Assembly: GCA_009746045.1 (NCBI GenBank)
Contig: RPFO01000176.1
Span: 128,501 to 192,500 of the forward strand
DNA from: Mesostigma viride
Lineage: Eukaryota; Streptophyta; Mesostigmatophyceae; Mesostigmatales; Mesostigmataceae
Direction of reading: 5' to 3'
Length of the DNA stretch: 64,000 nucleotides
Part shown: one piece after another, positions 7,440 through 63,841 of the stretch
How positions within the stretch are numbered: position 1 is the first letter of the stretch
How the letters are laid out: each line of letters starts with the position of its first letter
Program-made: the position numbers and the translations under genes
The notes under the pieces: generated by a model
Seen by the model: the letters and a program-made list of their open reading frames with translations, nothing else
The model's database searches: none
Told to the model about the DNA's origin: nothing

Positions 7440-7834
7440 CAATCCGGACATGTCTGGTAGGTGTCCGGGGGGCCCCGCCACCGGCTAGGCCGAGATTGGC
7501 AGCGAGCCGGCAGCAAGCTGGGCCGCTGGCTGCCACCTCGCGGCACGGCGCCGGGCCTACGCACCGGATTCTAAGCAAGATTCCGTGTTGTGCCGCTTGA
7601 TACCTATGTTTGTCCCGTAACGAATGGGTGAATACTTGGTACATTCCTTTTCTGGGGTACAAGTGCGTAGGCACACTTGTAATGTTTGTCAGGAGGCCCT
7701 CGGCAGCCTTACAAATGTCATGGCGGCTTTCCCCCTTCACGAAAAAAGAGGCTCCAAAAATTGCAGCAACGCAGCCATACCAAGTCTGATTAAGGTAGTG
7801 TATTGTGCTACAATAGCGCTAGAGAGCGGATAAA
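7440..7834. repeat. Dispersed repeat also present at 42980-43375
   Basis: Sequence around GCCGCCACCGGCTAGGCCGAG through GGGTACAAGTGCGTAGGCACAC is shared with 42995-43210. It is non-coding as far as can be seen. Confidence 0.7.
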
Positions 7835-10747: not shown

Positions 10748-11453
10748 ATGCCCTCACCCCGCGTCATTACCCTGAGTGTAAACGTAGAGCGACATCCACG
10801 GTGCCTACGCCTGGTGGCCGCCAGGTGGCATGGCCCAGGTGCATAAGTATAAAGGTCAGGGCATCGGTGGGCTGCGCTCTAGTGGGCATGCTAGGGCTAG
10901 AGTTCCACCGGCATCCAGGTCCTTTGCCAAATCTGGGGCATCCATCATGGCTATCAGGCACCATGATGGTGCGCCACACCCCCGCCATCAACCATTCTTC
11001 CCCTTGGCGTGAGCAGCATGGACAGAAGTGGTGCTATTCAGGTCTCAACAGCAACGTGGCACTCCGCTATTAGATCCGAAGTGTGCCCGAGGGTTCAGTG
11101 GCACTGCCGCTTAAGATGTGGCATGACATGGGGCATGTGGGCTGCGTCGATGGTCTCACATTGGTGCGGCCACTGAGGCCTTTTGGGCGATGCGAGCGTC
11201 AGGCGTCCCAGCACAACGGGTGATATAATTAAGACTTTGTTTTATTGGCAGTGAAAGCGTGCAAAACGTTTCCTGCATATTCTAGACCTTTCCCCTGTAG
11301 AAACGTTTCCCTGAGAGATTAACCCTTCCGTTCAATTGCAATAAAGGGGTTGTAAATGTTGGAGGTATTGTAAATGGTTACAATTGATATCAACCCATTC
11401 CCTGTCACTGCTCGTGTTGTCAATGTAAATGCCTTGCTGCTGCCTGCCCACAG
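10748..11453. repeat. Partial X-block intron sequence, copy 2a
   Basis: It begins mid-block relative to 12750 and 20630 and continues to the splice acceptor of the exon at 11454. No separate gene is seen. Confidence 0.75.
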
Positions 11454-11525
11454 TTACCTGGACAATAACCAGCTGAGCGGCACCATCCCACCTGAGCTGG
11501 GGTCTTTGAACTCCATGCAAGACCT
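11454..11525 (+). CDS. LRR exon 3 (72 bp)
   Basis: Acceptor CTGCCCACAG precedes 11454 and donor GTAAGCC follows 11525. It encodes YLDN, NQLSGTIPPELGSL, NSMQD plus a split Leu. NSM in place of VSV is shared only with the exon at 13173. Confidence 0.85.
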
Positions 11526-11695
11526 GTAAGCCTCCTTGAGAATTCTTCTTGTCAGCCCCTTGCATGTATGCCAAGAATGCACAAGCAGAGGTCTCACGAC
11601 AAACCTCCTTTGGCATGCTCTACTCTGCGGATGCTCCTGTCGGCATGCAGCTGGAGGCCCGCATGAGCTGGCATTAAGTGGGTTGTATACCATGA

Positions 11696-12270
11696 GTGAA
11701 CGATCCGCCAAGACCCTAGTCAGGACCTACAGGCACCGGGCTGGCCACCGGGCTGGCCCTGCAAAAGTTCTGAAGTCCAGTTTGTGTACTGTCAAAAAGA
11801 TGCGTTTTTTTTTTTTTGGGTCGCGGCGTTTGGTAGCGTATTCCCGTATTTTTGCGGCTCAGTACGGCGTATTCGCCAACCCGGACTACGCTACCTACGG
11901 CAGGTTGGTCCCCTTTGAGCCCGTATCGCTTTTCACTATAAAATGAGGAAAAGATCATCAAATTCACATTCTCCCCCGCGCCGTACCTTCCATTGGGGAG
12001 ATTATTTTCAAAACTTTTCTTCAAGACTTTGTAAGGATGGCGCTACAAAAAGCTTTCTCGCAGCAGTGCAGCTTCATGGGCAGCGTTCGAAACAGATTCC
12101 CCTTCAGTCGTGTAATTATGCCAGAAATCCCGCGTTCGATTCTCTAGTAGCACCCCATGCACCCATGTAGTGGTGCACAACGGTGTCGGTGGTAGCCACC
12201 TGTGTGCTAGCATGGCCAAGTCTGTACAGGGAGCTTCTTGCATACTTACAGTTGTCATTGCTTATCTTAT
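11696..12270. repeat. W-family A segment and tRNA-like tail, copy 2
   Basis: Starting near ATGAGTGAACGATCC the sequence leaves the X block. From about 11880 it matches 1160-1560, including the GCGTTCGATTCTC motif near 12133. A T10-plus run lies at 11807-11817. Confidence 0.65.
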
Positions 12271-13172
12271 TTGCAGGCCACTCATTCTTGGACGAGGGCT
12301 TCAGTGCTATCCTGTTGCATTTTTTGTGTGCCCATTGGCACATATTATGGACAGCACTATCGCCAGATCAGCAATCCTTACTGTGATTGGCTGGCGTGGA
12401 ATGTGTTCCATAGTGCATGGGGAATTGCGTAAGTAGCGTAATCTTTCTGACTGCCAGTACATACAGTGAACCTTGGCCTGCACACCTGTCAGGATGACCT
12501 TACCTGTGTCGTCCCATACCCCATCCTTGGCGCTAGGGTATATTCCAGGTCAACCCTATTATTCAAGTAGTAACATGACATTGTCTCAAGCACTATCAGA
12601 AGAGTCATCTCCCTCCTTCTGCATTATCATCATCCCTGCAATCCAGGCCAACGGTAGATGGTTTTTGGTCGTGCCTACCAGTGGCACTTTGCCAAACGGG
12701 GACCTGGGCAAAGGGGAGTACAACCGGAGGGAAGAGGCCGGCAGGGGACAATGCCCTCACCCCGCGTCATTACCCTGAGTGTAAACGTAGAGCGACATCC
12801 ACGGTGCCTACGCCTGGTGGCCGCGAGGTGGCATGGCCCAGGTGCATAAGTATAAAGGTCAGGGCATCGGTGGGCTGCGCTCTAGTGGGCATGCTAGGGC
12901 TAGAGTTCCACCGGCATCCAGGTCCTTTGCCAAATCTGGGGCATCCATCATGGCTATCAGGCACCATGATGGCGCGCCACACCTCCGTTATCAAACATTC
13001 TTCCCCTTGGCGTGAGCAGAATGGACAGAAGTGGGAATAAACCCTTCAGGTTAATTGCATGAATTGGGTGGTAAATGTTGGGGGTATTGTAAATGGTTAG
13101 AATTGATATCAACCCATTCCTTGTCACCGCTCGCGTTGTCAATGTAAATGCCTTGCTGCTGCCTGTCCACAG

Positions 13173-13244
13173 CTACCTGCTTCTCAACCAGCTGAGCGGC
13201 ACCATCCCACCCGAGCTGGGGTCTTTGAACTCCATGAAAGAGTT
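13173..13244 (+). CDS. LRR exon 4 (72 bp)
   Basis: Acceptor CTGTCCACAG precedes 13173 and donor GTAAGCC follows 13244. It encodes YLLL, NQLSGTIPPELGSL, NSMKE plus a split Leu. The hydrophobic YLLL start is unusual, since other exons have Asp, Ser, Gly or Asn at the third residue. Confidence 0.84.
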
Positions 13245-14760
13245 GTAAGCCTCCTCGAGTGTTGCTCTTGCCAGCCGCTTGCATGCATGCCAAGCGGGCA
13301 CGAGCAGAGGTCTCACGACAAACCTCCTTTGGCATGCTGTACTCTGCGGATGCTCCTGTCGGCATGCAGCTGGAGGCCCGCATGAGCTGGCATTGAGTGG
13401 GTTGTATACCGTACACTTGCGTGTCCACCATGTACTACTGTAGCGTGAATATCAGCAGGCCTCAGCTGGCAGGCTGCCAGGAAAGGTGCCTGCCATTCAG
13501 TTCACTTTTTGGAGAAAACATTTGCTTGTTCATTGAACCCCTTGGCGACCACAGCAATGGCTTCTGCTGACCGATACACCGTAGTGGAATCATGCAGAGG
13601 GGTCACTACATACGTGTCTTCTAGGCACGTCCTTAGGGACCCGCTTGCATTCCGTTCCTCGCTCAGCTATTGGCATGCTAACAGCTGACTCATTTCATGA
13701 TATCCGCCTCAGTAAGGCCCTAAAATTTGCATCAAACTTACATCCCCTACTATTTTTGCAAAAAAGTAATCTGGTCCCTTCACTTATTGACAACCTAGCT
13801 GCATGGCCCGAGTGCTTTTCTGATATGAAATCTTGTTTTTTTTTTTTTCAGCACACTGGTATGAGAGCGACGATCAGAGGCGGCTGAGACGGCGGATGGC
13901 TGGAAGTCCCGCCGACTGCACAGATGGCAGGCTTTGATCACTCACCAATGAATTAAGTATGGGCACTTTGTGAGCTGGCCATTTGTGGCTGCACGCGGCT
14001 ATGTTGAGCTGTGCAGTAAGCCTGTGGCCAAGGACACCGGGCCTGTAACGAAATGTACCACATTGCTAAAAAGCTGGTGCCAGGGGCTGTCCTATTCAAT
14101 AACATTCACACATCCTAGCCTTCATTCGCACCTCCTGACCTGGCCTCCAGGCCGCTACCCGTTGCACAGCGACTCACCAAGTTCAGTGGGCCTGCCTGCA
14201 CGGGTTCTGGCTGCTACCCCCCTGTTTTGGGAACCCATGCAGCCACTATAGTAGGGGCTCCATTTGGAGCTGGCGGACTACAGGGGTAGGCAATGGTCCC
14301 CATTATTTCGAGGTTTCCCTCGGGCCTTCCCTGGGGCAACTCAACCCAGCTATGTAGGGCAGTCTCGTGCGGCTTTAAAGAAGGTCTTGCCCCTTGCGCT
14401 GGTTTCCCAACGCTTTATGCACACAAATTCACCCCCAAATCCACCGATTTTGCCCATGTGCAGGCAAAACACCGCATGCCTACCACCGTATAAAGACAAC
14501 ACCATTAGGCTCTTTTTTTAAGAACCGCAGAAGTCAGTCGCAAGGCAATAATTTCTGGGTCTGGCCCCACGGCCTACTCCTGGCTCACCAGCACCTCGGA
14601 CCTGATGACAGCGACTGCTCGTTGATGCATCCCCCCTCTGCAACACCAGTGTTTCTGCTAAGGGTTTTTGGGCTGCGGTCGCGTGTGACCACGGCTCCCA
14701 AAATCCTGCGGTCAATGTGACCTCAGCCACCAAAATCCCGCGGTCGCACCTTTCAACATA
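13245..14760. repeat. X-block, part after the LRR exon, copy 2b
   Basis: Intron sequence matching 5410-6500 and 21401-24050 in pieces. It lacks the Z1 element, so it shows the empty integration site near 13512. No gene is seen. Confidence 0.7.
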
Positions 14761-15099
14761 GCTTTGTTGCAAGCAAGATGTGTTATACACTCCATTGAGT
14801 GCTTAGCCTAGGTCGGCTTTGTATTGGGGAATGGGGGGGGGGTTGCTATACCATTATATAGGCATTGTTAGGTGGGACGTGGATTAATAATGGCAGGCAC
14901 TGTTAAGGCAATTATGCCTCACCGGCTTACGGCCTTACAGCCCTTACTACTATAGTTACAGCCTTCACTCCCTTCAGTCCAAAACAGCTCTAGTGTCACA
15001 TCGCAGGCTTGCCACCTTGCGATGGGGCGTGGGACGTGGCCTGGACTCTAAAGGTCACGTACCAGGTTCCTGTCAGCGACGGCCTTTTGTTTCATAATT

Positions 15100-16293
15100 T
15101 TTTTTTGTGGCGGCAGGTCCGTTGTTCAGTTGCCCCTGCCGAGGAGGGGTAGTTGGGGACAATATGAGCCGTGCGAGGGTTGCGCTCCGAAGCAAAAAAT
15201 TATTCCCTATTGCGAGACTCGAGTCGGGGAGGGCGTCTTAGGGAGGCGAGGCAACGCCAGACCTTTGTCGTTCTTTTTCGTCTCAGCACCTGCTGCGTGG
15301 CTCAGTCTATTATGGTATCGTAAAACCTTTTTCCCTTTTGGACATTTGCGGAATTGCGAAATGCTGGCTTTTTTGGGGAGCTTGCTTTTGGGGTGGTCAC
15401 CGACTTGTGTCGCATTCAACCAGCAGGCCCCTGCGGGGGTTAATATAGCCTAGCGCGGGCTGAGTCGCCATTTAAGATGTTGCGACACGCTCTTTCGCGC
15501 ACGGTGGTCATGAGATTAATCGGCGCAATGGTTGGCGCCAGGGGGGGGTACTTGGGTGGAGGCTTCTTGCTTCCGTGTGCGGATTGAGAAACCTTAAGGC
15601 CACTGTTAACTGCTGCATTTGTGGCAGGGCTCCACTTATTGTATTCAATCAAATGCTGGTCTTCTTGGGAGCTTAGTGATCTTAATCGGTTTTATCTGAA
15701 TATAGCTTAATTAACGCATGCGGGAAAGATAGGGCTGCTATGCTTTGGCCTGCATGTGGAAGGCTGTCTGCGACATGGGCTGACTAATTCGATCTGTACA
15801 AAGGGTTTCATGTTCGCCTGAATTCTCCTTGGATGACCCGGTTGTTTGTAAGGGTCGGTGGCTATTAATTAGAGGTCCGAGAAAATTAATTGTAGGTTTT
15901 ATACGACTTGCTTGCAAAGATTCGTACTTGGGTGCACCAGCTGAGATTATATGGGGACCTGTAGGGTCGGCTGGTTGCTTAACGAATCTTTGACTGATTT
16001 GGGTTCTTTAGTGAGTTGTGATTAATTATTGTATGGTGGATTCGGTCCGGCCCAAGGGGTTGATGGGCGAGTTTTATGTTTGTCAGTCTTGGGAACCTTG
16101 TACAACTACCTGTACGCGTAACGCACTAGCCCGGGGGTGCGTGGGCACGTTGTTTGTAGTGGCGTTTTCAGCACTGTACAGGCCGGCGTGTGACGCATGC
16201 CGTTGTTACTTAATTTAGGATGATGTCGGCTTGTGTGTCGGCGGACGATGCCTTAAGCAAGCTAGGCAGGCAATGATCCGCAATTGTTTCTTT
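15100..16293 (+). mobile_element. Z2: truncated split-repeat element (internal, B1, A2)
   Basis: About 15110-15260 resembles the Z1 interior near 4230-4350 (CTGCCGAGG.GGGGTAGTTGGGG). 15560-15686 is a B segment (GGAGGCTTCTTGCTTCCGTG through GGAGCTTAGTGATCTT). 15687-16293 is an A segment. As in Z1, B abuts A directly across an AA. A1 and B2 are missing; the right end is cut at the start of the Y block. 14760-15100 holds nothing I recognise. Confidence 0.6.
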
Positions 16294-18453
16294 CAATGTT
16301 GGGATGTGCAGGCTTCTGCAAGCATTGTCATCAGAAGGCTTTTGGCGAGGTACCCCTATTAGAGCTGGGGAAGACAGGCGACGCCAGGCCACGAAAAAAA
16401 TTTAACCGAACTGCGGACCTTTGAGGAAAAGCGAGCACCTAACTTCATGCTTGCTAACTGAATGCCGCCGATGTAAAGCACCGAAAATCTCTGCCAGCAT
16501 GGTAATGCAGAGAAAGAAAAGGAGGTTGTTCGAAGCGATGTTAAAGCTGTCGATTCCTCCCCAGCTGTCAGTCCGAGAAGTATTTTATGATTCCACGGAT
16601 AAGGAGGAACGGGGGGAAGGGGGAGGGGGGTGGGGGAAGTCCGGCGCTGCCGCTTACGAAAACACCATGGAGCCGCTGTTTTCGGAAGGAGGATTGCTCA
16701 GTTGTCTTTGGAAAAAGGGACGCACACACAGTGCAGGGGGTGAAATTATAAGGAAAAGCCAGGGCTGATGGCCAGGGGTAAGTGGCTTCGAAAGGCTTTT
16801 ACAAGTAAATTCAGTGGTTTCAAGCAGTTGTATCTTATCGGAGATTGCGAAGCTGTGTCATGAGTTTGAAGAATCGGTCGCTTTGCTTTGCTTTATACCC
16901 CAACTAAATTTGCCTCGACTAAATTTGCCTCAACCATACTTGCCTCAACTAGTTTGCCTAAGTTACTAAGTTATGTAATGGATGTACAGCTTGGCACTGC
17001 CCACATTCTACAGTCAGATAGCCCGTTATTTTCCTCATTTGGTCTTGGTGCCTGGTAGCTTGGCTGCAACTAAATGCATTCTGCATAAATGTGTTTTTTC
17101 GGTACGTTTAGGCTAAGGCTTAAATGCCTAGGGCCATTAGCTACCCTTGTTGCCTGGGTTTTGTCACAAGAGGCGCTGACCCAGTTTTGTAAGAATGCTA
17201 AAGGAAGCATCAAAACCATGATAGAAATCCTATTGCCATTTTGTTTTGCCCAGAAACGATTCGCCTGCGTGTAGGGGGGGGGGGGCAAGATGTATATCGC
17301 GCAATGTAGTTTGTCGTGTAGGCAGTTTCTTTCACCCGCCCGCCCACCTCTTTCATGTGATCTTGTTGATTTGGGGCATGCACTACGGGCCAAAATGTTG
17401 TCTTATTGACGGTTTCCACTTGCCACTCATTAGTGATGGCCAGGTACACCGATTGCTTCAATCTAGACTCTTATTCATGATGGCCCAGTCCGCTACTTGT
17501 TCCAATATAGACTGGTGAATCTTGCCTGGGAATGAACAGGTGTAACAGTTGATCTGCATTCTCCTGGCCTTTTCGCATGTGGGATGTAACGTTGACCCTT
17601 GAGCTTGATTGTGATCAATAGGTATTAACCGCTGGAGGTATTTTCAATTGTTGGAGTTGATGTTAGCCAATTCCTTATTGCCACGCGCGCTGTAACATTG
17701 AATGTCTTGCTGTCTGTCCACAGTGCCCTGAGCGCTAACCGGCTGAGCGGCACCATCCCACCTGAGCTGGGGTCTTTGGTCTCCGTCCTAGACTTGTAAG
17801 CCTCCTTGAGCATTCCTCTTGTCAGCCCCTTGCATCCACTCCAAGCATGCGCGGGCCCAGATATCGTGAGAAGCCTCGAGACACACTCTCGTGCTGCATG
17901 GGTGACCCACAGCGTGAAGGGCATGCCGCACTGTGTGGCCCTCTGGCATGTCACTTCAGTAACTTGTTTAGCGACCCAACGCATGTCTCGTTACACCAGT
18001 CAGCCATTGTTGAGCTGTGCTGACATTTTCTACCGCAATGTGACCTGAGCTTGAATTGCTTTGCGGTATACCATGGGAAATGCTGTGGGTTGTTATCTAT
18101 GGGCCATTGGAGTACCGAACCCTACAATGAGAAACAATGTTATGGCAATATTTTTGTGCGTGGCTTTATAGTGGAGCCTTGGCCACACAATTTCTGAGCT
18201 ATCTGCTCATTTTGTAGCTATGTTGCGGCGGGCTCAAACGGGGCTGATATACCGCTTGTAGCGTAGTTTTACCGTACGTCACCTACACCATGCGAGATGC
18301 TTGTGTGACATAGGACTAGAGTAGGAGGGGACCGGCGTTGCGACGGTACTAGTGCCTACTGTCAACTGTGCCCCTTTTTGAGGGAAGTGTGGCGCCTTGA
18401 GAGCATGTGCTCTGACATGCATGTGCACACGTACTTTGAGTGGTGTGGTGACG
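16294..18453. repeat. Y-block copy 2 (partner 7835-10021)
   Basis: Near-identical to 7835-10021 with a few small indels (for example in the purine-rich stretch at 16609-16640 and a shorter segment at 16760-16790). It carries the LRR exon at 17724 and ends where the next CCCA array begins. Confidence 0.92.
17724..17795 (+). CDS. LRR exon 5 (72 bp), duplicate of exon at 9291
   Basis: Acceptor CTGTCCACAG and donor GTAAGCC as usual. It encodes the same ALSA ... VLDL repeat as 9291-9362 without a difference. The copy rode on the Y-block duplication. Confidence 0.85.
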
Positions 18454-18802
18454 ACCCACCCACCCACCCACCCGCCCGCCCACCCACCCACCCACCCACC
18501 CACCCGCCCGCCGCCCGCCCGCCCGCCCGCCCGCCCGCCCACCCACCCACCCACCCACCCACCCACCCACCCACCCACCCACCCACCCACCCACCCACCC
18601 ACCCACCCACCCACCCACCCACCCACCCACCCACCCACCCACCCACCCACCCACCCACCCACCCACCCACCCACCCACCCACCCACCCACCCACCCACAC
18701 CCACCCACCCACCCACCCACCCACCCACCCACCCACCCACCCACCCACCCACCCACCCACCCACCCACCCACCCACCCACCCACCCACCCATCCATCCAC
18801 CT
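18454..18802. repeat. (CCCA)n microsatellite, 349 bp
   Basis: CCCA units with CCCG variants near 18473-18540 and a few CCAT/CCTA variants at the right end. The left edge abuts a reverse W-family A segment (as at 10022) and the right edge abuts a reverse W-family B segment. Confidence 0.97.
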
Positions 18803-19800
18803 ACCCTCGCTGCGGTTGGCAGACAAGATTGGACCAAGGGTGCATGCGCTGGGCCCCAGCATGGGGAACTGGCCCAACTCGACCATGACTTGTATATGAC
18901 ACTGTAGGATGATTTTGGGTGTGGCTCGTCTCCACTTTAAGTGAATCGTGCACACAATAATTGTAACAAACTTGTTTCTCTGGTAGGAAGGCACTACAAT
19001 GGACTTTAGCTTCAGCACTTATTCAAACCTAATGCACAAATCATCATCAAGTTGCCTTGTCACCATGCCGGGGCCCATGTATAATCTTGAGCTTCTCCCG
19101 CACCAGCGAGGGTGGGTGGGTGGGTGGGAGCTGCAAAGAAAAGAGACCTCCCTAGTCACCGGCACCACTCTAAGTACACTTGTCACAGCGCCGACAGACG
19201 CGCCGCGCCTGAACATTGTTGCATTACGGGTTGCTAGGAATTGTCGGCACTACAGCACCACCGTGAGTTGCAAACTAAAAGAAAAAAAAAAAAAAAAAAC
19301 CCACTCAGGAGCCAGTAGTCGGCACAGCATTCCGGCACCACATGAGGTCGGTGCAGTACCCAGGTGATGGGTGCTAGAGCTAGCTACGCAGCCTACGCTA
19401 CCTACGGCAGGTTGGTCCCCTTTGAGCCCATATCGCATGAAAACCAACCATAAAATGAGCAAAAGGTCGTCAATTATCATTCCCCCCCGCCCCCCCGCAG
19501 GGTACGTTTGATTGGGGAGGCATTTGTAAAAAAAATGTAGTCTTTGTATGGCGCTACAAAAAGCTCTCTTACAGTTGGGCTGCAGCAGTGCAGCTTCATG
19601 GGCAGCGTTCGAAACGAATTCCCCTTCAGTCGCGTAATTATGCCAGAGATTCCGCGTTCGATTCGAGTCTAGTAGCACCCCATGCAACCATATAGTAGTG
19701 CACAACGGTGTCGGTGGTAGCCACCTGTGTGCTAGCATGGCCAAATCTGTACAGGGAGCTTCTTGCATACTTACAGCTGTCATAGCTTACCTTATTCCAA
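18803..19800. repeat. W-family repeat copy 3 (head-to-head B, GGGT run, A, tRNA-like tail)
   Basis: It starts ACCCTCGCTGCGGTTGG. A forward B segment ends CAGCGAGGG at about 19112, followed by four GGGT units and the A segment GAGCTGCAAAGAAAAGAGACC. The tail (about 19390-19800) includes CCGCGTTCGATTCG. An 18-A run lies at 19282-19299. Confidence 0.7.
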
Positions 19801-20099
19801 GTCCCAGCCGTTTTGTATCGTGGTTTAATTCCTAGTCAACAGTGTCCGTGTCACATCAGCAACGGCCGCTGGCGACGTTGCTGCAATTAAGCCGTAACGA
19901 TATGGTGTTGACAATGAGCTACCTGTTGCTCTTGTCAGAGTCTGATTTGACTCGGTATTTTGTGAGATGTTTCCTGTCCATTGCATTGGCGATGGTTTCT
20001 GAGAGAAAGGCCACTATTTCTTTCTTGCTGTGACGTACATGGCTGTTAGACTACGTTGCTGGCACTTACCACGACGGATTAACTTTATTTCCTGAGATT

Positions 20100-21328
20100 C
20101 GAGAAGGTTTTGCGCGTACTGTAGCGCATTCTTATTTGCAGGCCACTCATTCTCGGATGTCTCAGAGGGCTTCAATGCAATCCTGTTGCATTTTTTGTGT
20201 GCGTAGTGCCACAAATTATGGACAGCACTATCGCCAGATCAGCGATCCTTACTGTGATTGGCTGGCGTGGAATGTGTTCCATAGTTTATGGGGATTTTCA
20301 TAAGAAGCGTAATCTTTCTGACTGCCAGTACATACAGTGAACCTTGGCCTGCACACCTGTCAGGTCGACCTCACCTTTATCGTCCCATACCCCATCCTTG
20401 GTGCTAGGGTATATTCCAGGTCAACCCTGTTATTCAAGTAGTAACATGACATTGTCTCAAGCACTATCAGAAGAGTCATCTCCCTCCTTCTACATTATCA
20501 TCATCCCTGCAATCCAGGCCAACGGTAGATGGTTTTTGGTTGTGCCTACCAGTGGCACTTTGCCAAACGGGGACCTGGGCCAAGGGGAGTACAACCAGAG
20601 GGAAGAGGCCGGCAGGGGACAATGTCCTCACCCCGCGTCATTACCCTGAGTGTAAAGCTTAGGGTGGCATCCACGATGCCTACACCTGGTGGCCGCGAGG
20701 TAGCATGGCCCAGGTGCATAAGTATAAAGGTCAGGGCATCGGTGGGCTGCGCTCTAGTGGGCATGCTAGGGCTAGAGTTCCACCGGCATCCAGGTCCTTT
20801 GCCAAATCTGGGGCATCCATCATAGCTATCAGGCACCATGATGGCGCGCCACACCTCCGTTATCAAACATTCTTCCCCTTGGCGTGAGCAGAATGGACAG
20901 AAGTGGTGCTATTCAGGTCTCAACAGCAACGTGGCACTCCGCTATTAGATCCGAAGTGTGCCCGAGGGTTCAGTGGCACTGCCGCTTAAGATGTGGCATA
21001 ACATGGGGCATGTGGGCTGCGTCGATGGTCTCGCATCGGTGTGGCCACTGAGGCCTTTTGGGCGATGCGAGCGTCAGGCGTCCCAGCACAACGGGTGATA
21101 TAATTAAGACTTTGTTTTATTGGCAGTGAAAGCGTGCAAAACGTTTCCTGCATATTCTAGACCTTTCCCCTGTAGAAACGTTTCCCTGAGAGATTAACCC
21201 TTCTGTTCAGTTGCAATAAAGGGGTGGTAAATGTTGGAGGTCTTGTAAATTGTTAGAATTGATATCAACCCATTCCTTGTCACCGCTCGCGTTGTCAATA
21301 TAAATGCCTTGCTGCTGCCTGTCCACAG
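20100..21328. repeat. X-block intron sequence, copy 3
   Basis: It matches 1880-3081 and 12260-13172. It is the intron before the exon at 21329 and has no independent gene. Confidence 0.75.
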
Positions 21329-21400
21329 CTACCTGGACCATAACCAGCTGAGCGGCATCATCCCAGCCGAGCTGGGATCTTTGGTTTCCGTCCGTTACCT
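21329..21400 (+). CDS. LRR exon 6 (72 bp)
   Basis: Acceptor CTGTCCACAG precedes 21329 and donor GTAAGCC follows 21400. It encodes YLDH, NQLSGIIPAELGSL, VSVRY plus a split Leu. It is the closest relative of the exon at 3082 (shared IPAELGS and VRYL). Confidence 0.85.
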
Positions 21401-27259: not shown

Positions 27260-27331
27260 AGTTCTAGGCAACAACAAGCTGGATGGCACTATCCCATCAG
27301 AGCTGGGATCGCTGAACGACCTTAACCTGTT
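27260..27331 (+). CDS. LRR exon 7 (72 bp), divergent
   Basis: Acceptor TTTGCACAG precedes 27260 and donor GTAAGTTC follows 27331, unlike the GTAAGCCTCC of the duplicated exons. It encodes VLGN, NKLDGTIPSELGSL, NDLNL plus a split Leu. The flanking introns are not copies of the X, Y or tandem units. This looks like an older, unamplified exon, probably the last LRR before the cap. Confidence 0.85.
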
Positions 27332-28586: not shown

Positions 28587-28696
28587 GGATGTGGCCTACA
28601 ACCCATGGATTTGTGGACCAGACCCTGCTGTCCCGGAGTCAGATCAACAGCCGCCAATCGTGGAAAGGACCGGCACATTTGGACTTATTTGCCCTG
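28587..28696 (+). CDS. LRR C-terminal cap exon (110 bp)
   Basis: Acceptor CTTTTTCTGCAG precedes 28587 and donor GTAAGTTG follows 28696. The frame continues from the LRR exons (one base completes the split codon). It reads DVAYNPWICGPDPAVPES, then DQQPPIVERTGTFGLICP and one base of the next codon. NPWICG followed about 25 residues later by a second Cys is the usual end of a plant LRR domain. The exon changes the reading phase from 2 to 1, so an ordinary LRR exon cannot follow it. Confidence 0.75.
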
Positions 28697-32702: not shown

Positions 32703-32878
32703 TTGCTAAGAACCTAACGAGCGATGTCCAGGCATTGCTGGCGCTGAAGGAGGCAATTACCAATGAGGGAACATATCTGGACAGCTGGACCGCTGAACGC
32801 GACCCTTGCACCGATGGATTTGTTGGCGTCCAGTGCAATTCTGGCAATACAAGAGTGGAGATTATCGACCTGAGCAGG
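32703..32878 (+). CDS. LRRNT-type N-terminal cap exon
   Basis: It encodes AKNLTSDVQALLALKEAI..., LDSWTAERDPCTDGFVGVQC and ...VEIIDLS. The pattern D.ALL.LK, SW...DPC, GV.C, V..IDLS is the plant LRRNT_2 domain that starts LRR ectodomains. The donor AG/GTAAGT at 32879 leaves phase 2, matching the next exon. Start choice: acceptor GGTTGCTTCCAG at 32702 gives phase 1, exactly what the C-cap exon at 28696 provides. Alternatively ATG 32657 in the same frame gives a short, moderately hydrophobic leader (FLGGSVWLLPVA) that could be a weak signal peptide. Confidence 0.8.
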
Positions 32879-34555
32879 TAAGTATAATGGCACTCTGAAC
32901 CTTATGTTACTCAGTGTGCAGTGAGATGCAAGAACAGTCACTGCCTCTAGCTTGACACAGGTGGATATCTTGATTCCAATGCCACCACAGCCTGACATGG
33001 ATGACTTGTACAGAGTCTGGCCCCTGTTTTACTTTCTCGGTCCTCTGGCCATGGCTCAATATCTAGTATGTAAGATGGAAGGGTAGTCGCTATAGCTAGG
33101 TTATAGGGTTGGTGTAACTAGGGTGGACGTGAACTTTGAGGCCACTGCAGCCTGAAACGGAACTGCCGTGGGAAGTATTCAGCCAGTTTTCTGGCCAGGT
33201 GTCTGAGAGCTGCGCTGCATACAATATCGCCACTGTCTAGGTTTCTTTTGAATGGCGTAGTGATTTCCTAGAACTGATATTTTTCTCCCACGCATTCTTT
33301 GACCTACTATGTATGAGCCCGGGCATTGCTACGTATGATGGGGGTAAATGGGACGCCAATTTGCGTCATTTGTCCAGGCACAAAAAGTGCTTTGCGAAAA
33401 ATGCCATCCAGGCCAAGGCCGCGTCCCACGAAAGGAAACTAAAGCCAACCCATCTAGCTAAGGTCGGCCTTTTTTCTTTCCCTGCTCACCCTCTTTGTGT
33501 TTTTGTCAGTGGCTAAGTCTAGCCTTTTGACAAGCAATGAGGTTCCCATGAGCACCAACTTTTACTAATGTGCGCCACTGTCAATGTTTTGTTTACTAAC
33601 CGAACTCGGGCCTCTCTATGCCCTCCTCAAGGTTGCCCTTAAGCTTAAGTATAGTATATACCATGCATTTCCGCTCTTTGTAAAGGCATGATCCAGAGAT
33701 GGGCGATGCCTCTTTGTTTACTAGCCAATGCAAACTTGTCCATCCTTGTTGTTCTGTTGCTGGTACTTTGTGCCTGCAGCAAGCAATTTTCCGGGACTCT
33801 CCCACCTCAGCTGGGTGACTTGGCAGCCCTGACGAAAATGTAAGTGTCTCCTGCTGACTGCTGAGAAAGATAACCAATCTCCGTCCATGGTTTCTTTGGT
33901 TACCGGACATCCAACATTTGGTATTTTTATTGTCAAAGGTAAACAAACTTTCACTTTGCACCCACATCTAAGCACAGACTGTTGCACAGTTTTGTGCCGT
34001 GCGATGTCAGCATATGTATGCGCTGGAATTAGATTTAGGCTTCAGCATCATCCGCTAAAAGAACGGTCATCTGTGCGCATTGACGTTTGTGCAAGGTAGT
34101 ACTCTGATATCCTATGTACGTGGTTAACAGATGCAACAAATGTTTGGTGCCAACACCACCACAACATAACACCATATTCGTGAGCTAGCGCTTGTAATAT
34201 CTTGCGGAATCGTGTAGTTGGGTCAGGATAGGTACCGTAGTGGTCAAAATCACTTTGCGACTGCAATACAAGGTGAAAGTTTATATTTGCGAGGCAAAAC
34301 TGTTTCCACAGGGTATTTGCGACGCGGTACTTTCTTAGCATATACTATGAAATTTGTACGTACAAAAGTGCAGTAGCATTTAAACTAGTGTTTGCGAGTC
34401 GGAATAAAACATAGTAATAGAGTTTGCGATGTCGATTCACAAAGTATTTTTTGCCAAGTGATTTGACCACTACGGCACATGCGTCTTGTCTTAGAAAGAA
34501 CTTGCAAAAGATCTTGCAAAAGTTATGCTTTATGCTAGTAACCCCCGTGGGTTTA
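32879..34555. other. Introns around the exon at 33780
   Basis: Apart from the 60-bp exon nothing is recognised in 32879-33779 or 33840-34555. The sequence is not copied elsewhere in the window. Confidence 0.5.
33780..33839 (+). CDS. First LRR exon after LRRNT (60 bp)
   Basis: Acceptor TGTGCCTGCAG precedes 33780 and donor GTAAGTG follows 33839. Joined to the previous exon it reads IIDLSS, then KQFSGTLPPQLGDL, AALTK and a split codon beginning AT. The shorter length (20 codons) is because the first beta-strand residues come from the LRRNT exon. Flanking introns are unique, so it is probably an original exon. Confidence 0.85.
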
Positions 34556-40319: not shown

Positions 40320-41110
40320 CGCCAGCGCGGTACTTTGGCCCTTGCATCTGGCACGGCGCAACCACGCTGGGGGACTCCGCCGTGCGCCTGATGCCGTAAG
40401 TCCATCCACGCAAATAATTTCTGCTCCTGGGGTAAACGCCAGGGAAAGGAGTACTGCGCAGATCGGGACATAAATATTCGGGCGGGTTACGAATGGGTTA
40501 CACAGTTCATTTGCACGATGATCGTTTTTCTTGCGGGATGGAAATCTTAACCATTATATAACTAACTAACGCCGATATTGCGTACTAACTGTTGCAGGTA
40601 CTGCCTGTTGTCGGATCAAGTTGATGTTAATCCCTTCCTTGTTGCCACTCGCGCTGTCACATTGAATGCCTTGCCTTTTCCTGTCCACAGTCTTCTGGAT
40701 GGCAACAAGCTGAGCGGCACCATCCCACCCGAGCTAGGGTCTTTGGTCTCCATGCAATACATGTAAGCCTCCTTGAGGATTGCTCGAGAATGTCAGCCCA
40801 ATGCATCCACGCCAAGCACACGCGAGCACAGATATCGTGAGAAGCCTTGTGGTACACTCTCGCGCTGCATGGGTGACCCACAGTGCCTGAGGCACAGGAC
40901 ATGGCGTACTGCGTGGCACCCTTGCATGTCAGTTGAGTAAGTTGTTGAGCGACCCAACGCATGATGTCTCGCACCGCCAGGCAGCCATTGGCAAACTGTG
41001 CTACTATTTTTTGTCGCAATGTGACCTAGGCTGTGAAATCGCTTTGTGGCGTACCATGCGTAGTCCTACCCTCCATCTCCCGGTCGGGTACTTTCGGTTG
41101 GGGTTCCAAA
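40320..41110. repeat. Diverged single copy of the exon-intron unit amplified at 58.4-64 kb
   Basis: Before the exon it has a CATCTGGCACGGCGCAACCA block and CAGATCGGGACATAAA, comparable to units at 60240-60420 and 60980. After the exon it has GATATCGTGAGAAGCCTTGT and the following ACTTGTTGAGCGACCCAACG-like stretch. It is more diverged than the tandem copies and may resemble their ancestor. Confidence 0.6.
40691..40762 (+). CDS. LRR exon (72 bp)
   Basis: Acceptor CTGTCCACAG precedes 40691 and donor GTAAGCC follows 40762. It encodes LLDG, NKLSGTIPPELGSL, VSMQY plus a split AT. codon (Met or Ile). NKL is shared with the older exon at 27260. Confidence 0.85.
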
Positions 41111-50098: not shown

Positions 50099-50170
50099 TG
50101 CCCTGAGCAATAACCAGCTGAGCGGCACCATCCCACCCGAGCTGGGGTCTTTGGTCTACATCACAAACCT
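50099..50170 (+). CDS. LRR exon (72 bp)
   Basis: Acceptor CTGTCCACAG precedes 50099 and donor GTAAGCC follows 50170. It encodes ALSN, NQLSGTIPPELGSL, VYITN plus a split Leu. VY in place of VS is unique among the exons. Confidence 0.85.
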
Positions 50171-53573: not shown

Positions 53574-53645
53574 CTACCTGGATTCTAACCAGCTGAGTGG
53601 CGTCATCCCACGCGAGCTGGGGTCTTTGGTCTCCGCCCGTGCCAT
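53574..53645 (+). CDS. LRR exon (72 bp)
   Basis: Acceptor CTGTCCACAG precedes 53574 and donor GTAAGCC follows 53645. It encodes YLDS, NQLSGVIPRELGSL, VSARA plus a split AT. codon. VIP links it to the X-block exon at 3082. Confidence 0.85.
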
Positions 53646-58521: not shown

Positions 58522-58593
58522 TGTCCTGGGCGCTAACCAGCTGAGCGGCACCATCCCACATGAGCTGGGGTCTTTGGTCTCCGTCCGAATGTT
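58522..58593 (+). CDS. LRR exon, tandem array unit 1 (72 bp)
   Basis: Acceptor TTGCCCACAG, donor GTAAGCC. It encodes VLGA, NQLSGTIPHELGSL, VSVRM plus a split Leu. The PHE variant and VRML end reappear in the chimeric exon at 62495. Confidence 0.86.
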
Positions 58594-59074
58594 GTAAGCC
58601 TCCATGAGCATTCCTCTTGTCTCCCCCGTGCATCTGCGCCAAGCACACGCGAGCACAGATATCGCGAGAAGCCTTGTGATACACTCTCGTGCTGCATGGG
58701 TGACCCACAGCGGCTGTGCTTGTAGGAAGCTGCTGAGGCTTCCATCCTAGACACGAATGCCAAAATTAATTCTCAACGGAGCAGAAACATCGTGAGGAGC
58801 CTTGTGCTGCTTCAATCTAGACTCTTATTCATGATGGCCCAGTCCACTACTAGTTCCAATATAGACTGGTGAATCATGCCTGGGAATGAGCAGGTGTAAC
58901 AGTTTATCTGCATTCTCCTAGCCATTTCGCATGTGGGATGTAACGCTTGACCCTTGAGCTTGATTGCGATCAATGGGTCTTAACCGTTGGATGTATTTTC
59001 AATTGTTGGAGTTGATGTTAGCCAATTCCTTATTGCCACGCGCGCTGTCACATTTAATGCCTTGCTGTCCACAG

Positions 59075-59146
59075 TGCCCTGAACAAAAACCAGCTGAGCG
59101 GCACCATCTCACCCGAGCTGGGGTCTTTGGTCTCCGTCCAATCCTT
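59075..59146 (+). CDS. LRR exon, tandem array unit 2 (72 bp)
   Basis: Acceptor CTGTCCACAG, donor GTAAGCC. It encodes ALNK, NQLSGTISPELGSL, VSVQS plus a split Leu. IS replaces the usual IP, a rare scaffold change. Confidence 0.85.
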
Positions 59147-59705
59147 GTAAGCCTACTTGACAATTCCTCTTGTCAGCCCCATGCATCCACGCCAAGCACA
59201 CGCTAGCACAGATATCGTGAGAAGCCTTGTGATACACTCTAGTGCTGCATGAGTGACGCAGTCAGTGACTGAGACATGGCGTACTGCGTGGCACTCTTGC
59301 ATGTCAGTTGAGTAACTTGTTGAGCGAGCCAACGCATGTCTCGTTACACCAGGGAGCTGCTGTTCAGCTGCAATTCGGCACGGCGCGACCACTGTGTCAT
59401 ATTCACCAGCATATGCCGGGTGCTGTAGGACCGAAATTCATCAACGCAAATACTTGCTTGTCTAGCAGCGGACGCAAGGCATGGCCAGTGCGTTAAATCC
59501 GGACAAAAACATTGCGGCCCACATCGAGTATCCTTCTCGTTTGCCTTGTGGGACCTAAGTGTTCAACATTGAGGGTAATTGCGATAAGTGGGTACTTACT
59601 GTTGCAGGTGTTGTCCGCTGTTGGATTGAGTTGCATGATGTTGACCCATTCCTTTGATGCCACTCGCGCTTTCACATTTAATGCCTTGCTGCTGCCTGTC
59701 CACAG

Positions 59706-59777
59706 TATCCTGGGCCCAAACCAGCTCAGCGGCACCATCCCACCCGAGCTGGGTTCTTTGGTCTCCTTACAACAACT
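59706..59777 (+). CDS. LRR exon, tandem array unit 3 (72 bp)
   Basis: Acceptor CTGTCCACAG, donor GTAAGCC. It encodes ILGP, NQLSGTIPPELGSL, VSLQQ plus a split Leu. The start matches the next unit but the end does not. Confidence 0.86.
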
Positions 59778-60001
59778 GTAAGCCTCCTTGAGCATTCCTC
59801 TTGTCGGACCCTTGCATCCACGCCAAGCACACGCAAGCACAGATATCGTGAGAAGCCTTGTGATACACTCTCGTGCTGCATGAGTGACCCAGTCAGTGGC
59901 TGAGGCAAAGGACATGGCGTACTGCGTGGCCCTCTTGCATGTGATTTGAGTAACTTGTTGAGCGAGCCAACGCATGTCTTGTTACACCAGGGAGCCGCTG
60001 T

Positions 60002-60207
60002 AGTTAGGTTAAATAGTGCCGGAACCTTTTGCCGCCTGAGGCAAATCGGTCTGTCACACTATTTTGCCCGGAAGAACTACTTCCGAGCACCCAAGTTCAT
60101 TCGGCCGAATTAACTTGGGTGCTCGGAAGTGGTTCTTCCGGGCAAAATAGTGTGACGGACCGATTTGCCTCAGGCGGCAAAAGGTTCCGGCACTATTTAA
60201 CCTAACT
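60002..60207. mobile_element. M2-type fold-back MITE with 5-bp target duplication
   Basis: A 206-bp near-perfect hairpin with ends AGTTAGGTTAAATAGTGCCG and its complement, flanked by GCTGT at 59997-60001 and 60208-60212. The other units have one GCTGT at this place. Only one of the tandem units carries it. Confidence 0.92.
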
Positions 60208-60558
60208 GCTGTTGCGCTGCAGTTCGGCACGGCGCGGCCACCGTGTCGTATTCGCCAGCATATGCCGGGTGCTGTAAGACCGAAATTCATCAACGCAACT
60301 ATTTTCTTGTCTCGCAGCGGACGCAAGGAATGGCCACTGCGTTAAATCCGGACAAAAACATTGCGGCCCACATCGAGGATCCTTCTCGTTTGCCTTGTGG
60401 GACTTAAGTGTTCAACATTGAGGGTAATGGCGATAAGTGGGTACTTACTGTTGCAGGTGTTGTCCACTGTTGGATTGAGTTGCATGATGTTGACCCATTC
60501 CGTTGATGCCACTCGCGCTGTCACATTGAATAATGAATGCCCTGCGATCTGTCCACAG

Positions 60559-60630
60559 TATCCTGGGCCCAAACCAGCTCAGCGGCACCATCCCACCCGA
60601 GCTGGGGTCTTTGGGCTTCGTCCAATACTT
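60559..60630 (+). CDS. LRR exon, tandem array unit 4 (72 bp)
   Basis: Acceptor CTGTCCACAG, donor GTAAGCC. It encodes ILGP, NQLSGTIPPELGSL, GFVQY plus a split Leu. GF replaces the usual VS. Confidence 0.86.
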
Positions 60631-61202
60631 GTAAGCCTCCTTGAGCATTCCTCTTGTCAGTCCCTTGCATCCACGCCAAGCACACGCGAGCACAGATATC
60701 GTGAGAAGCCTTGTGGTACACTCTCGTGCTGCATGGGTGACCCACAGCGGCTGAGGCAAAGGACATGGCGTACTGCGTGGCACCCTTGCATGTGATTTGA
60801 GTAACTTGTTGAGCAAGCTAACGCATGTCTCGTTACACCAGGGAGCTGCTGTTCAGCTGCAATTCGGCACAGCGCGACCACCTTGTCATATTCACCAGCA
60901 TATGCTGGGTGCTGTAAGACCGAAATTCATCAACGCAAATATTTGCTTGTCTAGCAGCAGACGCAAAGCAAAGGCCAAAATCGGGACATAAACATTGCGG
61001 CCCACATCGAGGATCCTTCTCGTTTGCCTTGTGGGATGTAAGTGTTCAACATTCAGGATAATGGCGGTAAGTGGGTACTTACTACTTACTGTTGCAGGTG
61101 TTGTCTTCTGTTGGATTGAGTTGCATGATGTTGACCCATTCCGTTGATGCCACTCGCGCTGTCACATTGAATAATGAATGCCTTGCTGCTGCCTGTCCAC
61201 AG

Positions 61203-61274
61203 GTACCTGAGTTCTAACCAGCTCAGCGGCACCATCCCATACGAGCTGGGGTCTTTGGTCTCCGACCTATCCTT
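61203..61274 (+). CDS. LRR exon, tandem array unit 5 (72 bp)
   Basis: Acceptor CTGTCCACAG, donor GTAAGCC. It encodes YLSS, NQLSGTIPYELGSL, VSDLS plus a split Leu. The last three codons differ strongly from the neighbouring unit although the flanking introns are almost identical. Confidence 0.86.
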
Positions 61275-61850
61275 GTAAGCCTCATCTCGTGTTGCTCTTG
61301 TCAGCCCCATGTATCCACGCCAAGCAAGCACACGCGAGCACAGATATCGTGAGAAGCCTTGTGATACACTCTCGTGCTGCATGGGTGACCCACAGTGGAT
61401 GAGGCAAAGGACATGGTGTACTGCGTGGCACTCTTGCATGTCAGTTGAGTAACTTGTTGAGCAAGCTAACACATGTCTCGTTACACCAGGGAGCTGCTGT
61501 TCAGCTGCAATTCGGCACAGCGCGACCACCGTGTCATATTCACCAGCATATGCCGGGTGCTGTAAGACCGAAATTCATCAACGCAAATATTTGCTTGTCT
61601 AGCAGCGGACGCAAAGCAAAGGCCACTGCGTTAAATCCGGACATAAACATTGCGGCCCACATCGAGGATCCTTCTCGTTTGCCTTGTGGGACGTAAGTGT
61701 TCAACATTGAGGGTAATGGCGATAAGTGGGTACTTACTGTTGCAGGTGTTGTCCGCTGTTGGATTGAGTTGCATGATGTTGACCCATTCCGTTGATGCCA
61801 CTCGCGCTGTCACATTGAATAATGAATGCCTTGCTGCTGCCTGTCCACAG

Positions 61851-61922
61851 GTACCTCAGTTCTAACCGGCTTAGCGGCAACATCCCACCCGAGCTGGGGT
61901 CTTTGGTCTCCGTCCGTTACTT
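61851..61922 (+). CDS. LRR exon, tandem array unit 6 (72 bp)
   Basis: Acceptor CTGTCCACAG, donor GTAAGCC. It encodes YLSS, NRLSGNIPPELGSL, VSVRY plus a split Leu. NRL with a CTT Leu codon marks it as the donor of the 5' half of the next exon. Confidence 0.86.
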
Positions 61923-62494
61923 GTAAGCCTCCTTGAGCATTCCTCTTGTCGGACCCTTGCATCCACGCCAAGCACACGCGAGCACAGATATCGTGAGAAG
62001 CCTTGTGGTACACTCTCGTGCTGCATGGGTGACCCACAGTGGCTGAGGCAAAGGACATGGTGTACTGCGTGGCACTCTTGCATGTCAGTTGAGTAACTTG
62101 TTGAGCAAGCTAACACATGTCTCGTTACACCAGGGAGCTGCTGTTCAGCTGCAATTCGGCACAGCGCGACCACCGTGTCATATTCACCAGCATATGCCGG
62201 GTGCTGTAAGACCGAAATTCATCAACGCAAATATTTGCTTGTCTAGCAGCGGACGCAAAGCAAAGGCCACTGCGTTAAATCCGGACATAAACATTGCGGC
62301 CCACATCGAGGATCCTTCTCGTTTGCCTTGTGGGACGTAAGTGTTCAACATTGAGGGTAATGGCGATAAGTGGGTACTTACTGTTGCAGGTGTTGTCCGC
62401 TGTTGGATTGAGTTGCATGATGTTGACCCATTCCGTTGATGCCACTCGCGCTGTCACATTGAATAATGAATGCCTTGCTGCTGCCTGTCCACAG

Positions 62495-62566
62495 GTACCT
62501 CAGTTCTAACCGGCTTAGCGGCACCATCCCACATGAGCTGGGGTCTTTGGTCTCCGTCCGAATGTT
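62495..62566 (+). CDS. LRR exon, tandem array unit 7 (72 bp), chimeric
   Basis: It encodes YLSS, NRLSGTIPHELGSL, VSVRM plus a split Leu. The 5' half and upstream intron are as in the unit at 61851. The 3' half and the first intron bases (GTAAGCCTCCATGAGCATTC) are as in the unit at 58522. A crossover or conversion within the exon made a new combination. Confidence 0.86.
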
Positions 62567-63133
62567 GTAAGCCTCCATGAGCATTCCTCTTTTCTCCCCC
62601 GTGCATCCACGCCAAGCACACGCGAGCACAGATATCGTGAGAAGCCTTGTGGTACACTCTCGCGCTGCATGGGTGACCCACAGTGCCTGAGGCAAAGGAC
62701 ATGGTGTACTGCGTGGCACCCTTGCATGTGATTTGAGTAACTTGTTGAGCGACCCAACGCATGTCTCGTTACACCAGGGGTTTGAGCGCTGCGATTCGGC
62801 ACGGCGCGACCACTGTGTCATATTCACCAGCATATGCCGGGTGCTGTAAGACCGAAAGTCATCAACGCAAATATTTGCTTGTCTAGCAGTGGACGCAAGG
62901 CATGGCCACTGCGTTAACTTGGGACATAAACATTGCGGCCCACATCGAGGATCCTTCTCGTTTGCCTTGCGGGACGTAAGTGTTCAACATTGAGGGTAAT
63001 TGCGATAAGTGGGTACTAACTGTTGCAGGTGTTGTCCGCTGTTGGATTGAGTTGCATGATGTTGACCCATTCCGTTGATGCCACTCGCGCTGTCACATTG
63101 AATAATGAATGCCTTGCTGCTGCCTGTCCACAG

Positions 63134-63205
63134 GTACCTGGATTCTAACCAGCTCAGCGGCACCATGCCGCACGAGCTGGGGTCTTTGGTCTCCGTCACA
63201 AACAT
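63134..63205 (+). CDS. LRR exon, tandem array unit 8 (72 bp)
   Basis: Acceptor CTGTCCACAG, donor GTAAGCC. It encodes YLDS, NQLSGTMPHELGSL, VSVTN plus a split AT. codon. MP replaces IP. Confidence 0.86.
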
Positions 63206-63769
63206 GTAAGCCTCCTCTCGTGTTGCTCTTGTCAGCCTCATGCATCCACGCCGAGCACACGCGAGCACAGATATCGTGAGAAGCCTTGTGATACACTCTC
63301 GTGCTGCATGGGTGACCCACAGCGCCTGAGGCAAAGGACACGGCGTACTGCGTGGCACTCTTGCATGTCAGTTGAGTAACTTGTTGAGCGACCCAACGCA
63401 TGTCTCGTTACACCAGGGAGCCGCTGTTGCGCTGCAATTCGGCACAGCGCGACCACCTTGTCATATTCGCCAGCATATGCCGGGTGCTGTAAGACCGAAA
63501 GTCATCAACGCAAATATTTGCTTGTCTAGCAGTGGACGCATGGCATGGCCACTGCGTTAACTTGGGACATAAACATTGCGGCCCACATCGAGGATCCTTC
63601 TCGTTTGCCTTGTGGGACGTAAGTGTTCAACATTGAGGGTAATGGCGATAAGTGGGTACTTACTGTTGCAGGTGTTGTCTTCTGTTGGATTGAGTTGCAT
63701 GATGTTGACCCATTCCGTTGTTGCCACTCGCACTGTCACATGGAATGCCTTGCTGTTTCCTGCCCACAG

Positions 63770-63841
63770 TAACCTGGATTCTAACCAGCTCAGGGGCACG
63801 ATCCCACCCGAGCTGGGGTCTTTGGTCTCCGTCCGTTACTT
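63770..63841 (+). CDS. LRR exon, tandem array unit 9 (72 bp), last in window
   Basis: Acceptor CTGCCCACAG, donor GTAAGCC. It encodes NLDS, NQLRGTIPPELGSL, VSVRY plus a split Leu. QLRG in place of QLSG is unique here. The intron continues past the window end, so more exons are expected downstream. Confidence 0.85.

What the first reader, a model, noticed from the sequence alone, without database searches (positions are those of the whole stretch)
58522..63841. LRR exon cassette with invariant core and variable ends placed at splice junctions
Seen: across the exons the middle (N.LSGTIPPELGSL) hardly changes. The first residues (YLDS, ALSA, VLGA, ILGP, ALNK, YLSS, NLDS, YLLL) and the last ones (VRY, LDL, MQD, MKE, VRM, VQS, LQQ, VQY, DLS, VTN, ITN, ARA) vary. 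At 61203 versus 61851 most bases of the last three codons differ while surrounding introns are almost identical. Known: in plant LRRs the xxLxLxx residues form the exposed beta-strand face that binds ligand. The intron cuts inside that motif, so each splice junction would assemble one face from two exons. Because all exons are phase 2-2, any combination stays in frame. Inference: a repertoire-generating receptor, by germline rearrangement and possibly alternative splicing.
Basis: partly seen in the sequence, partly recalled or inferred. Interest (0 to 1): 0.9.

Follow-up and report, generated by a model that had tools for sequence, protein, structure and literature searches.

The report
Shuffled one-repeat exons of algal receptors
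A green-lineage genome carries a row of giant receptor-like genes built from interchangeable 72-base exons, one leucine-rich repeat each, in which the residues predicted to touch a ligand vary most and the exons appear in a different order on a second contig; this looks like a green-lineage counterpart of the shuffled receptor exons known from brown algae.

Summary
The window has 19 LRR exons, each exactly 72 bp and phase 2-2; the finding's nine (58522-63841) belong to the middle one of three tandem genes on a 298-kb contig (39 LRR exons over 205 kb, same strand, 37 of 39 exactly 72 bp). Each gene reads as N-cap exon, 60-bp half-repeat, 11-13 cassette exons, a divergent last repeat and a C-cap exon. 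Genes 1 and 2 join in one open frame; gene 3 only if one frame-breaking exon is left out. The five exposed positions of xxLxLxx (exon codons 1, 3, 4, 22, 23) are the most diverse five-codon set of 33,649, replicated in 13 exons of other loci. In recent duplicates these codons differ about eight times more than flanking introns. A second contig carries identical exons in another order. Germline shuffling plus diversifying selection is well supported; whether breakpoints fall in the exon itself is less clear. Splicing, alternative splicing, expression, ligand and immune role are untested; no kinase was found near. Closest known: brown-algal LRR-ROCO genes (72-bp phase-2 LRR exons, shuffling, selected concave face) and Tetrahymena 90-bp LRR exon arrays. 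New variant of a known kind.

The parts
58522..63841 (+). nine 72-bp LRR exons of gene 2: starts 58522, 59075, 59706, 60559, 61203, 61851, 62495, 63134, 63770 (each 72 bp)
53574..53645 (+). LRR exon of gene 2 (YLDSNQLSGVIPRELGSLVSARA)
50099..50170 (+). LRR exon of gene 2 (ALSNNQLSGTIPPELGSLVYITN)
40691..40762 (+). first full LRR cassette exon of gene 2 (LLDGNKLSGTIPPELGSLVSMQY)
33780..33839 (+). 60-bp half-LRR exon of gene 2 (KQFSGTLPPQLGDLAALTK), phase 2-2, conserved in genes 1 and 3
32717..32877 (+). N-cap exon of gene 2 (LRRNT_2 match 32717-32839; exon start not fixed), ends in phase 2
28587..28696 (+). C-cap exon of gene 1 (DVAYNPWICGPDP...ICP)
27260..27331 (+). divergent last LRR exon of gene 1 (VLGNNKLDGTIPSELGSLNDLNL, donor GTAAGT)
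3082..21400 (+). six LRR exons of gene 1: starts 3082, 9291, 11454, 13173, 17724, 21329 (each 72 bp)
7835..18806 (+). segmental duplication (7835-10377 and 16294-18806, 97.1%) that carries two identical exons (9291, 17724)

Best explanation
The exons belong to tandem genes for extracellular, plant-type LRR receptor-like proteins in a green-lineage organism. Each 72-bp exon is one LRR turn, with phase-2 introns placed inside the LxL strand. The split codon reads XT|N and so always gives a hydrophobic core residue (F, L, I or M with the bases seen), so any exon can follow any other without harming the fold. Over evolutionary time the germline reorders, duplicates and deletes these exons by recombination in and around them, moving exposed-face ends between copies and between genes, while diversifying selection keeps exposed residues different and purifying selection holds the scaffold. 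Shown: anatomy, open frame from N-cap to C-cap in genes 1 and 2, site-specific diversity, mosaic exons, reordered second contig. Inferred: that the exons are spliced together, that the protein is at the cell surface, and that it recognises varied ligands (microbes or self/non-self).
For: Gene models: three LRRNT_2 N-caps on the contig, each followed by a 60-bp half repeat, 72-bp cassettes, a divergent last LRR and a C-cap exon; joined translations have no stop in genes 1 and 2 (gene 3 after leaving out its 71-bp exon). Joined gene 2: LRRNT_2 E 2.2e-8 and LRR matches; phmmer E 6e-202 to the plant receptor GSO1, one aligned stretch including the N-cap. Diversity: exposed set rank 1 of 33,649 and again in 13 exons from other loci (0.90 against 0.32; 13 of the 15 exons). 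All 595 pairs: exposed codons pN 0.61, core pN 0.097, core pS 0.18, introns 0.39 upstream and 0.26 downstream; 17 pairs with both introns under 10%: exposed pN 0.42 against introns 0.04-0.06. In 13 of 14 disjoint pairs exposed pN exceeds both introns; the 14th pair is identical in the exon. No stop in 35 exons although neutral change of the same amount gives 9.2 exons with a stop on average and none without a stop in 2000 runs. Splice sites conserved: diversity 0.10 at -10..-1 against 0.58 at -40..-11; 0.05 at +1..+8 against 0.36 at +9..+40. Mosaics: 13 of 595 pairs are identical or one base apart in one half of the exon; in 11 of them the other half differs by 5-10 bases; 3' ends such as VRM, VQS, LQQ, VRY recur in different genes. 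PHI test: p 0.002 for exon plus flanks. Second contig C435: 8 of 8 intact exons found in 16.5 kb identical to C269 exons, in another order, some lost or doubled; the N-cap upstream is gene-1 type, identical over the 160 bases compared.
Against: No RNA, so splicing and expression are not shown. Recombination inside the exon alone is weakly supported (PHI p 0.02; 0.14 after the 640-bp tandem family and a duplicate were removed), and similarity between copies rarely stops at an exon edge: of 558 pairs aligned through the exon, 1 stops within 20 bases on the left while running 150 or more on the right, and 0 the other way round; most breaks lie 50-300 bases out in the introns. In close pairs synonymous change at exposed codons is also high (pS 0.35), so selection on point mutations alone does not explain it; exchange of exon ends or homogenised introns is needed. 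C269 and C435 are short contigs, so part of the rearrangement could be assembly error; both are gap-free where read. About 30 kb of C435 between the stretches read was not seen, so that its N-cap and exons form one gene is inferred. Gene 3 has one frame-breaking exon. The 5' start (signal peptide) and the exons after the C-cap were not found.
Confidence: 0.75

Rival explanations
1. Intron homogenisation: tandem copies exchange intron sequence by gene conversion, making introns look young, while exon differences are old and simply kept. The excess at exposed codons then needs ordinary selection, not active transfer of exon ends.
For: In close pairs core pS (0.117) is also about twice the intron divergence and exposed pS is raised; recombination in the downstream flank is clear (PHI p 0.002); similarity breaks lie mostly in introns.
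Against: Pairs such as 188207/226837 share the 3' half (1 base) and downstream intron (5%) but differ in the 5' half (8 bases) and upstream intron (41%): whole ends moved between genes. On C435 the exon VRY is followed by the intron that follows the VRM exon on C269, with the switch within intron bases 11-26.
Confidence: 0.35
2. Combinatorial splicing: one long pre-mRNA gives many proteins by skipping of symmetric exons, Dscam-like, so diversity is made in each individual.
For: All 19 window LRR exons are 72 bp and phase 2-2, so any skip keeps frame; brown-algal ROCO genes of the same design have alternative LRR transcripts (PMC11378527 section 11).
Against: No RNA tested; open frames from N-cap to C-cap including every cassette (genes 1 and 2) fit constitutive splicing equally well.
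Confidence: 0.2
3. Decaying or reservoir array: exons are non-expressed cassettes, with expression only from genes elsewhere.
For: Exon spacing up to 22 kb and a weak tyrosine-recombinase match in an intron of gene 1; one frame-breaking exon in gene 3; a half exon without its acceptor on C435.
Against: N- and C-caps in order for all three genes, no stops in the 72-bp exons, conserved splice sites, core pN/pS about 0.5.
Confidence: 0.1
4. The reordered second contig is an assembly artefact and there is no rearrangement between copies.
For: Both contigs are short (298 and 245 kb) in an assembly with contigs up to 14.3 Mb; the array is highly repetitive.
Against: C435 blocks differ from C269 by 0.5-4% and have their own junctions, including a switch just after an exon end and a join inside an exon.
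Confidence: 0.15

Closest known systems
Brown-algal LRR-ROCO genes (Ectocarpus, Saccharina; PMC11378527, building on Zambounis 2012)
   Same: 72-bp phase-2 exons, one LRR each, exon shuffling, diversifying selection on concave-face sites, LRR-only exon reservoirs (sections 11 and 15 read)
   Different: Green lineage; N-cap and C-cap extracellular LRR instead of LRR-ROC-COR; no Roc match on C269 or C435. By my reading of their site numbers (14, 16, 18, 19 of 23) their variable face lies inside one exon, here it is split over two.
Tetrahymena 90-bp LRR exon arrays (PMC6564038)
   Same: tandem exons of one fixed length, phase-2 introns, expansion by shuffling (abstract and passages)
   Different: 90 bp, ciliate, linked there to a LINE-like element. 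The passages seen had no test of exposed-face selection; the term 'positive selection' has 0 occurrences in the main text.
Land-plant LRR receptor ectodomains (GSO1, FLS2, ERECTA-like)
   Same: 24-residue plant-type LRR, LRRNT_2 cap, closest solved structures; 72-bp LRR exons with an intron at the same L are recalled for SERK/ERECTA genes, not checked
   Different: Here dozens of near-identical cassettes, long introns, recent shuffling; no kinase found nearby.
Lamprey VLR and arthropod Dscam (recalled; Dscam also named in PMC11378527)
   Same: modular repertoire logic
   Different: No evidence here for somatic assembly or alternative splicing; neither was testable.

Membership tests
Plant-type extracellular LRR receptor-like protein | LRRNT_2 N-cap followed by 24-residue LxxLxxLxxLxLxxNxLxGxIPxx repeats | tested here: met
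Plant-type extracellular LRR receptor-like protein | C-terminal LRR cap with cysteines | tested here: met
   ICGPxP...CP exon in all three genes
Plant-type extracellular LRR receptor-like protein | signal peptide and membrane anchor | tested here: inconclusive
   5' exon and exons after the C-cap not identified
LRR receptor-like kinase | kinase domain in the same gene | tested here: not met
   no HRD-type motif in 249,650 bases of C269; 0 of 147 kinase matches on C269 or C435 (only best candidates are scored)
Brown-algal LRR-ROCO | 72-bp phase-2 exon per LRR with selection on the concave face | tested here: met
   definition
Brown-algal LRR-ROCO | ROC-COR domains | tested here: not met
   0 of 22 Roc matches on C269 or C435
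Repertoire system by alternative splicing (Dscam-like) | multiple exon combinations in transcripts | not testable with these tools
   no RNA data held

The most novel reading that the evidence does not exclude
A green-lineage anticipatory recognition system: individuals differ in exon order and number (fast germline shuffling with exon-end exchange), and perhaps splice combinatorially, so each junction assembles a new binding strand from two half-faces.
Probability: 0.25. Interest if true: 0.85.

Novelty: new variant of a known kind. Interest (0 to 1): 0.62.

Why it matters
It would show that the brown-algal exon-cassette strategy also arose in the green lineage, on a plant-type extracellular LRR scaffold, and with the splice junction inside the binding strand. 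That makes the evolution of receptor repertoires in the green lineage directly testable by reading haplotypes and transcripts of one locus.

Tried and rejected
Rejected: random repeat or pseudogene (no stops in the 72-bp exons, conserved splice sites, caps present). Rejected: ROCO membership (no Roc match on the contigs). Rejected: receptor kinase. Led nowhere: looking for an intronless copy of these spliced exons; the best intronless hit (C1690, 819 aa, L041) is a different LRR protein. Led nowhere: an exon-edge concentration of breakpoints (speaks against it). Organism: two RbcS matches on nuclear-size contigs; in the PDB the best matches score 157-154 bits and the chains I recall as Chlamydomonas 126 bits (organisms are not named in that listing), so green lineage, species not determined; the 18S search did not complete.

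Literature: the listings of eight searches (with 10 of 16 rows shown, 68) show no paper on such arrays in a green alga in the held library; absence elsewhere is not shown. Zambounis 2012 was not read, only as cited.
Full report
What is there. The window is G000:C269:128501-192500 of a 440-Mb assembly. It holds 19 LRR exons on the + strand, each 72 bp, CAG acceptor, GTAAG-type donor, one leftover base in front and two behind. I read 249,650 bases of the 298,150-base contig (the first 48,500 bases were not read): 37 exons found with a core consensus, two more divergent ones with a general finder, 39 in all over 205 kb, spacing 553 to 22,303 bases. 37 of 39 are 72 bp, one 75, one 71. The general finder also gave one weak minus-strand match over the last exon, taken as chance; one shuffle of the contig part gave none.

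Genes. A search for LRRNT_2 gave 66 matches in the genome, three on C269, same strand (71378, 161217, 223387). Each N-cap exon ends in phase 2 and is followed by a conserved 60-bp half-repeat exon (79030, 162280, 224467), then 13, 12 and 11 cassettes, then a divergent last LRR exon (155761, 203763, 293923) and a C-cap exon with ICGPxP...CP. Joined, genes 1 and 2 give an uninterrupted ectodomain. Gene 3 does so only if its 71-bp exon is left out, so 10 of its 11 cassettes were joined. The finding's exons are the last nine of gene 2's twelve cassettes. The joined gene 2 matches LRRNT_2 and LRR families and aligns with the plant receptor GSO1, one stretch including the N-cap. No kinase motif was seen in the contig part read, and none of 147 kinase matches in the genome lies on C269 or C435 (best candidates only), so it looks like a receptor-like protein, not a receptor kinase. 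The signal-peptide exon and what follows the C-cap are open.

Where it varies. In the repeat LGSLVSVRYLYLDSNQLSGTIPPE the intron lies in the codon of the leucine before the x of LxL. The exposed positions of xxLxLxx are codons 22 and 23 of one exon and 1, 3 and 4 of the next. Across the 35 exons of 72 bp (of 37) these five have mean residue diversity 0.834 against 0.186 for the rest, and no other set of five codons of 33,649 reaches it. In 13 exons of other loci the same set again ranks first, 0.90 against 0.32. Both sets were found by their conserved core, which flatters the contrast; among the positions that the finder does not use, the exposed five are still the highest. Codon 13 is also variable (0.68). 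The split codon has T in second place in all 35, so every junction gives a hydrophobic residue.

Selection against introns. Over 595 pairs exposed codons have pN 0.61 and pS 0.42, core codons pN 0.097 and pS 0.18, introns 0.39 (upstream) and 0.26 (downstream). In the 17 pairs with both introns under 10%, introns average 0.041 and 0.058 while exposed codons have pN 0.42 and pS 0.35. These 17 pairs overlap heavily in a 640-bp tandem family, so I also took disjoint pairs: exposed pN exceeds both introns in 4 of 5, 10 of 11 and 13 of 14 pairs at three thresholds (in one of the first five only just, 0.09 against 0.085); the exception each time is a recent duplication with identical exons. High pS at exposed codons shows that more than accumulated point changes is involved: ends are exchanged, or introns are homogenised.

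Exchange of ends. Thirteen of 595 pairs are identical or one base apart in one half of the exon; in 11 the other half differs by 5 to 10 bases. Cases such as 188207/226837 (genes 2 and 3) share the 3' half and downstream intron (5%) but not the 5' half or upstream intron (41%). The 35 exons have 31 different 5' ends (codons 1-4), 22 different 3' ends (codons 21-23) and 34 combinations; 3' ends recur across genes. The PHI test is significant for exon plus flanks (0.002) and the downstream flank (0.002), weak for the exon alone (0.02) and not significant in a reduced set of 27 (0.14). Against a hot spot at the exon edge: of 558 pairs aligned through the exon, only 1 loses similarity within 20 bases upstream while keeping 150 or more downstream, 0 the reverse, 7 lose it on both sides, and 126 keep 150 or more on both. 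So most breaks lie in the introns, and exon-internal ones are a minority seen in single cases.

A reordered copy. Contig C435 (244,793 bases) was read over 16.5 kb plus two 500-base pieces. The eight intact exons found in the 16.5 kb are each identical to a C269 exon, in the order 178600, 182075, 169192, 189704, 190352, 191635, 277484, 277484; blocks matching C269 at 96-99.5% cover 89% of it. The unit of exon 190996 is missing, and the exon before the gap carries that unit's intron from within bases 11-26 on (3 of 250 differences against 21 of 246). One junction falls inside an exon and leaves a half exon without its acceptor. A further identical copy of exon 169192 lies at 201 kb, and the N-cap at 222.8 kb is gene-1 type: 160 of the 160 bases compared, against 143 and 139 for genes 2 and 3 (which prints 161 as total but compared 160). 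So this is a chimera of parts of genes 1, 2 and 3, or an allele of the region; the stretches between were not read. Exons show 0 of 576 differences; flanks show 23 in 3,847 (my sum, leaving out three flanks that cross a junction: 23 of 296, 24 of 219, 36 of 213), so short-term exon conservation is suggestive only (about 3.4 expected).

Genome-wide. Exons of the same design occur on other contigs, and arrays have an LRRNT_2 match upstream on the same strand in the cases I checked: C1524 (368999 before 379859), C1690 (6653369 before 6655790), C1713 (1272892 before 1278069).

Known or new. Brown-algal ROCO genes have 72-bp phase-2 LRR exons, shuffling, alternative splicing and selected concave sites (PMC11378527: outline with abstract, sections 11 and 15, and passages). 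Tetrahymena has 90-bp phase-2 LRR exon arrays (PMC6564038: passages including the abstract). The present case shares the principle, but differs in lineage, in scaffold (capped extracellular LRR, no ROC-COR) and, as I read their site numbers, in splitting the binding strand between two exons. That intron position itself is recalled for land-plant SERK/ERECTA genes and was not checked. I therefore call it a new variant of a known kind.

Noticed in passing
window about 60003-60206: Near-perfect inverted repeat of about 200 bases in the intron after exon 59706, not seen in the sister introns (read by eye): looks like a short inverted-repeat transposon insertion.
   Followed up: no
window 1-340, 10021-10745, 18454-18806, 29314-29945, 50521-50662: Long tetranucleotide arrays (CCCA, ACCC, TCCC, GGGT units), mostly in introns of these genes; also a (GCA)292 array at 39357-40233.
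   Followed up: no
L011:6365-7156 and L027:3086-4282: A weak tyrosine-recombinase-like match (below the Pfam cut-off) in an intron of gene 1, and a reverse transcriptase upstream of gene 1.
   Followed up: partly
L041 (C1690:9,087,401-9,090,600): Intronless 819-aa LRR protein with related repeats and a weak Root_cap match near its C-terminus.
   Followed up: partly
G000:C1107:651917-1310236: Tandem array of 22 listed kinase matches on one strand, mostly in frames of about 1150-1260 aa.
   Followed up: no
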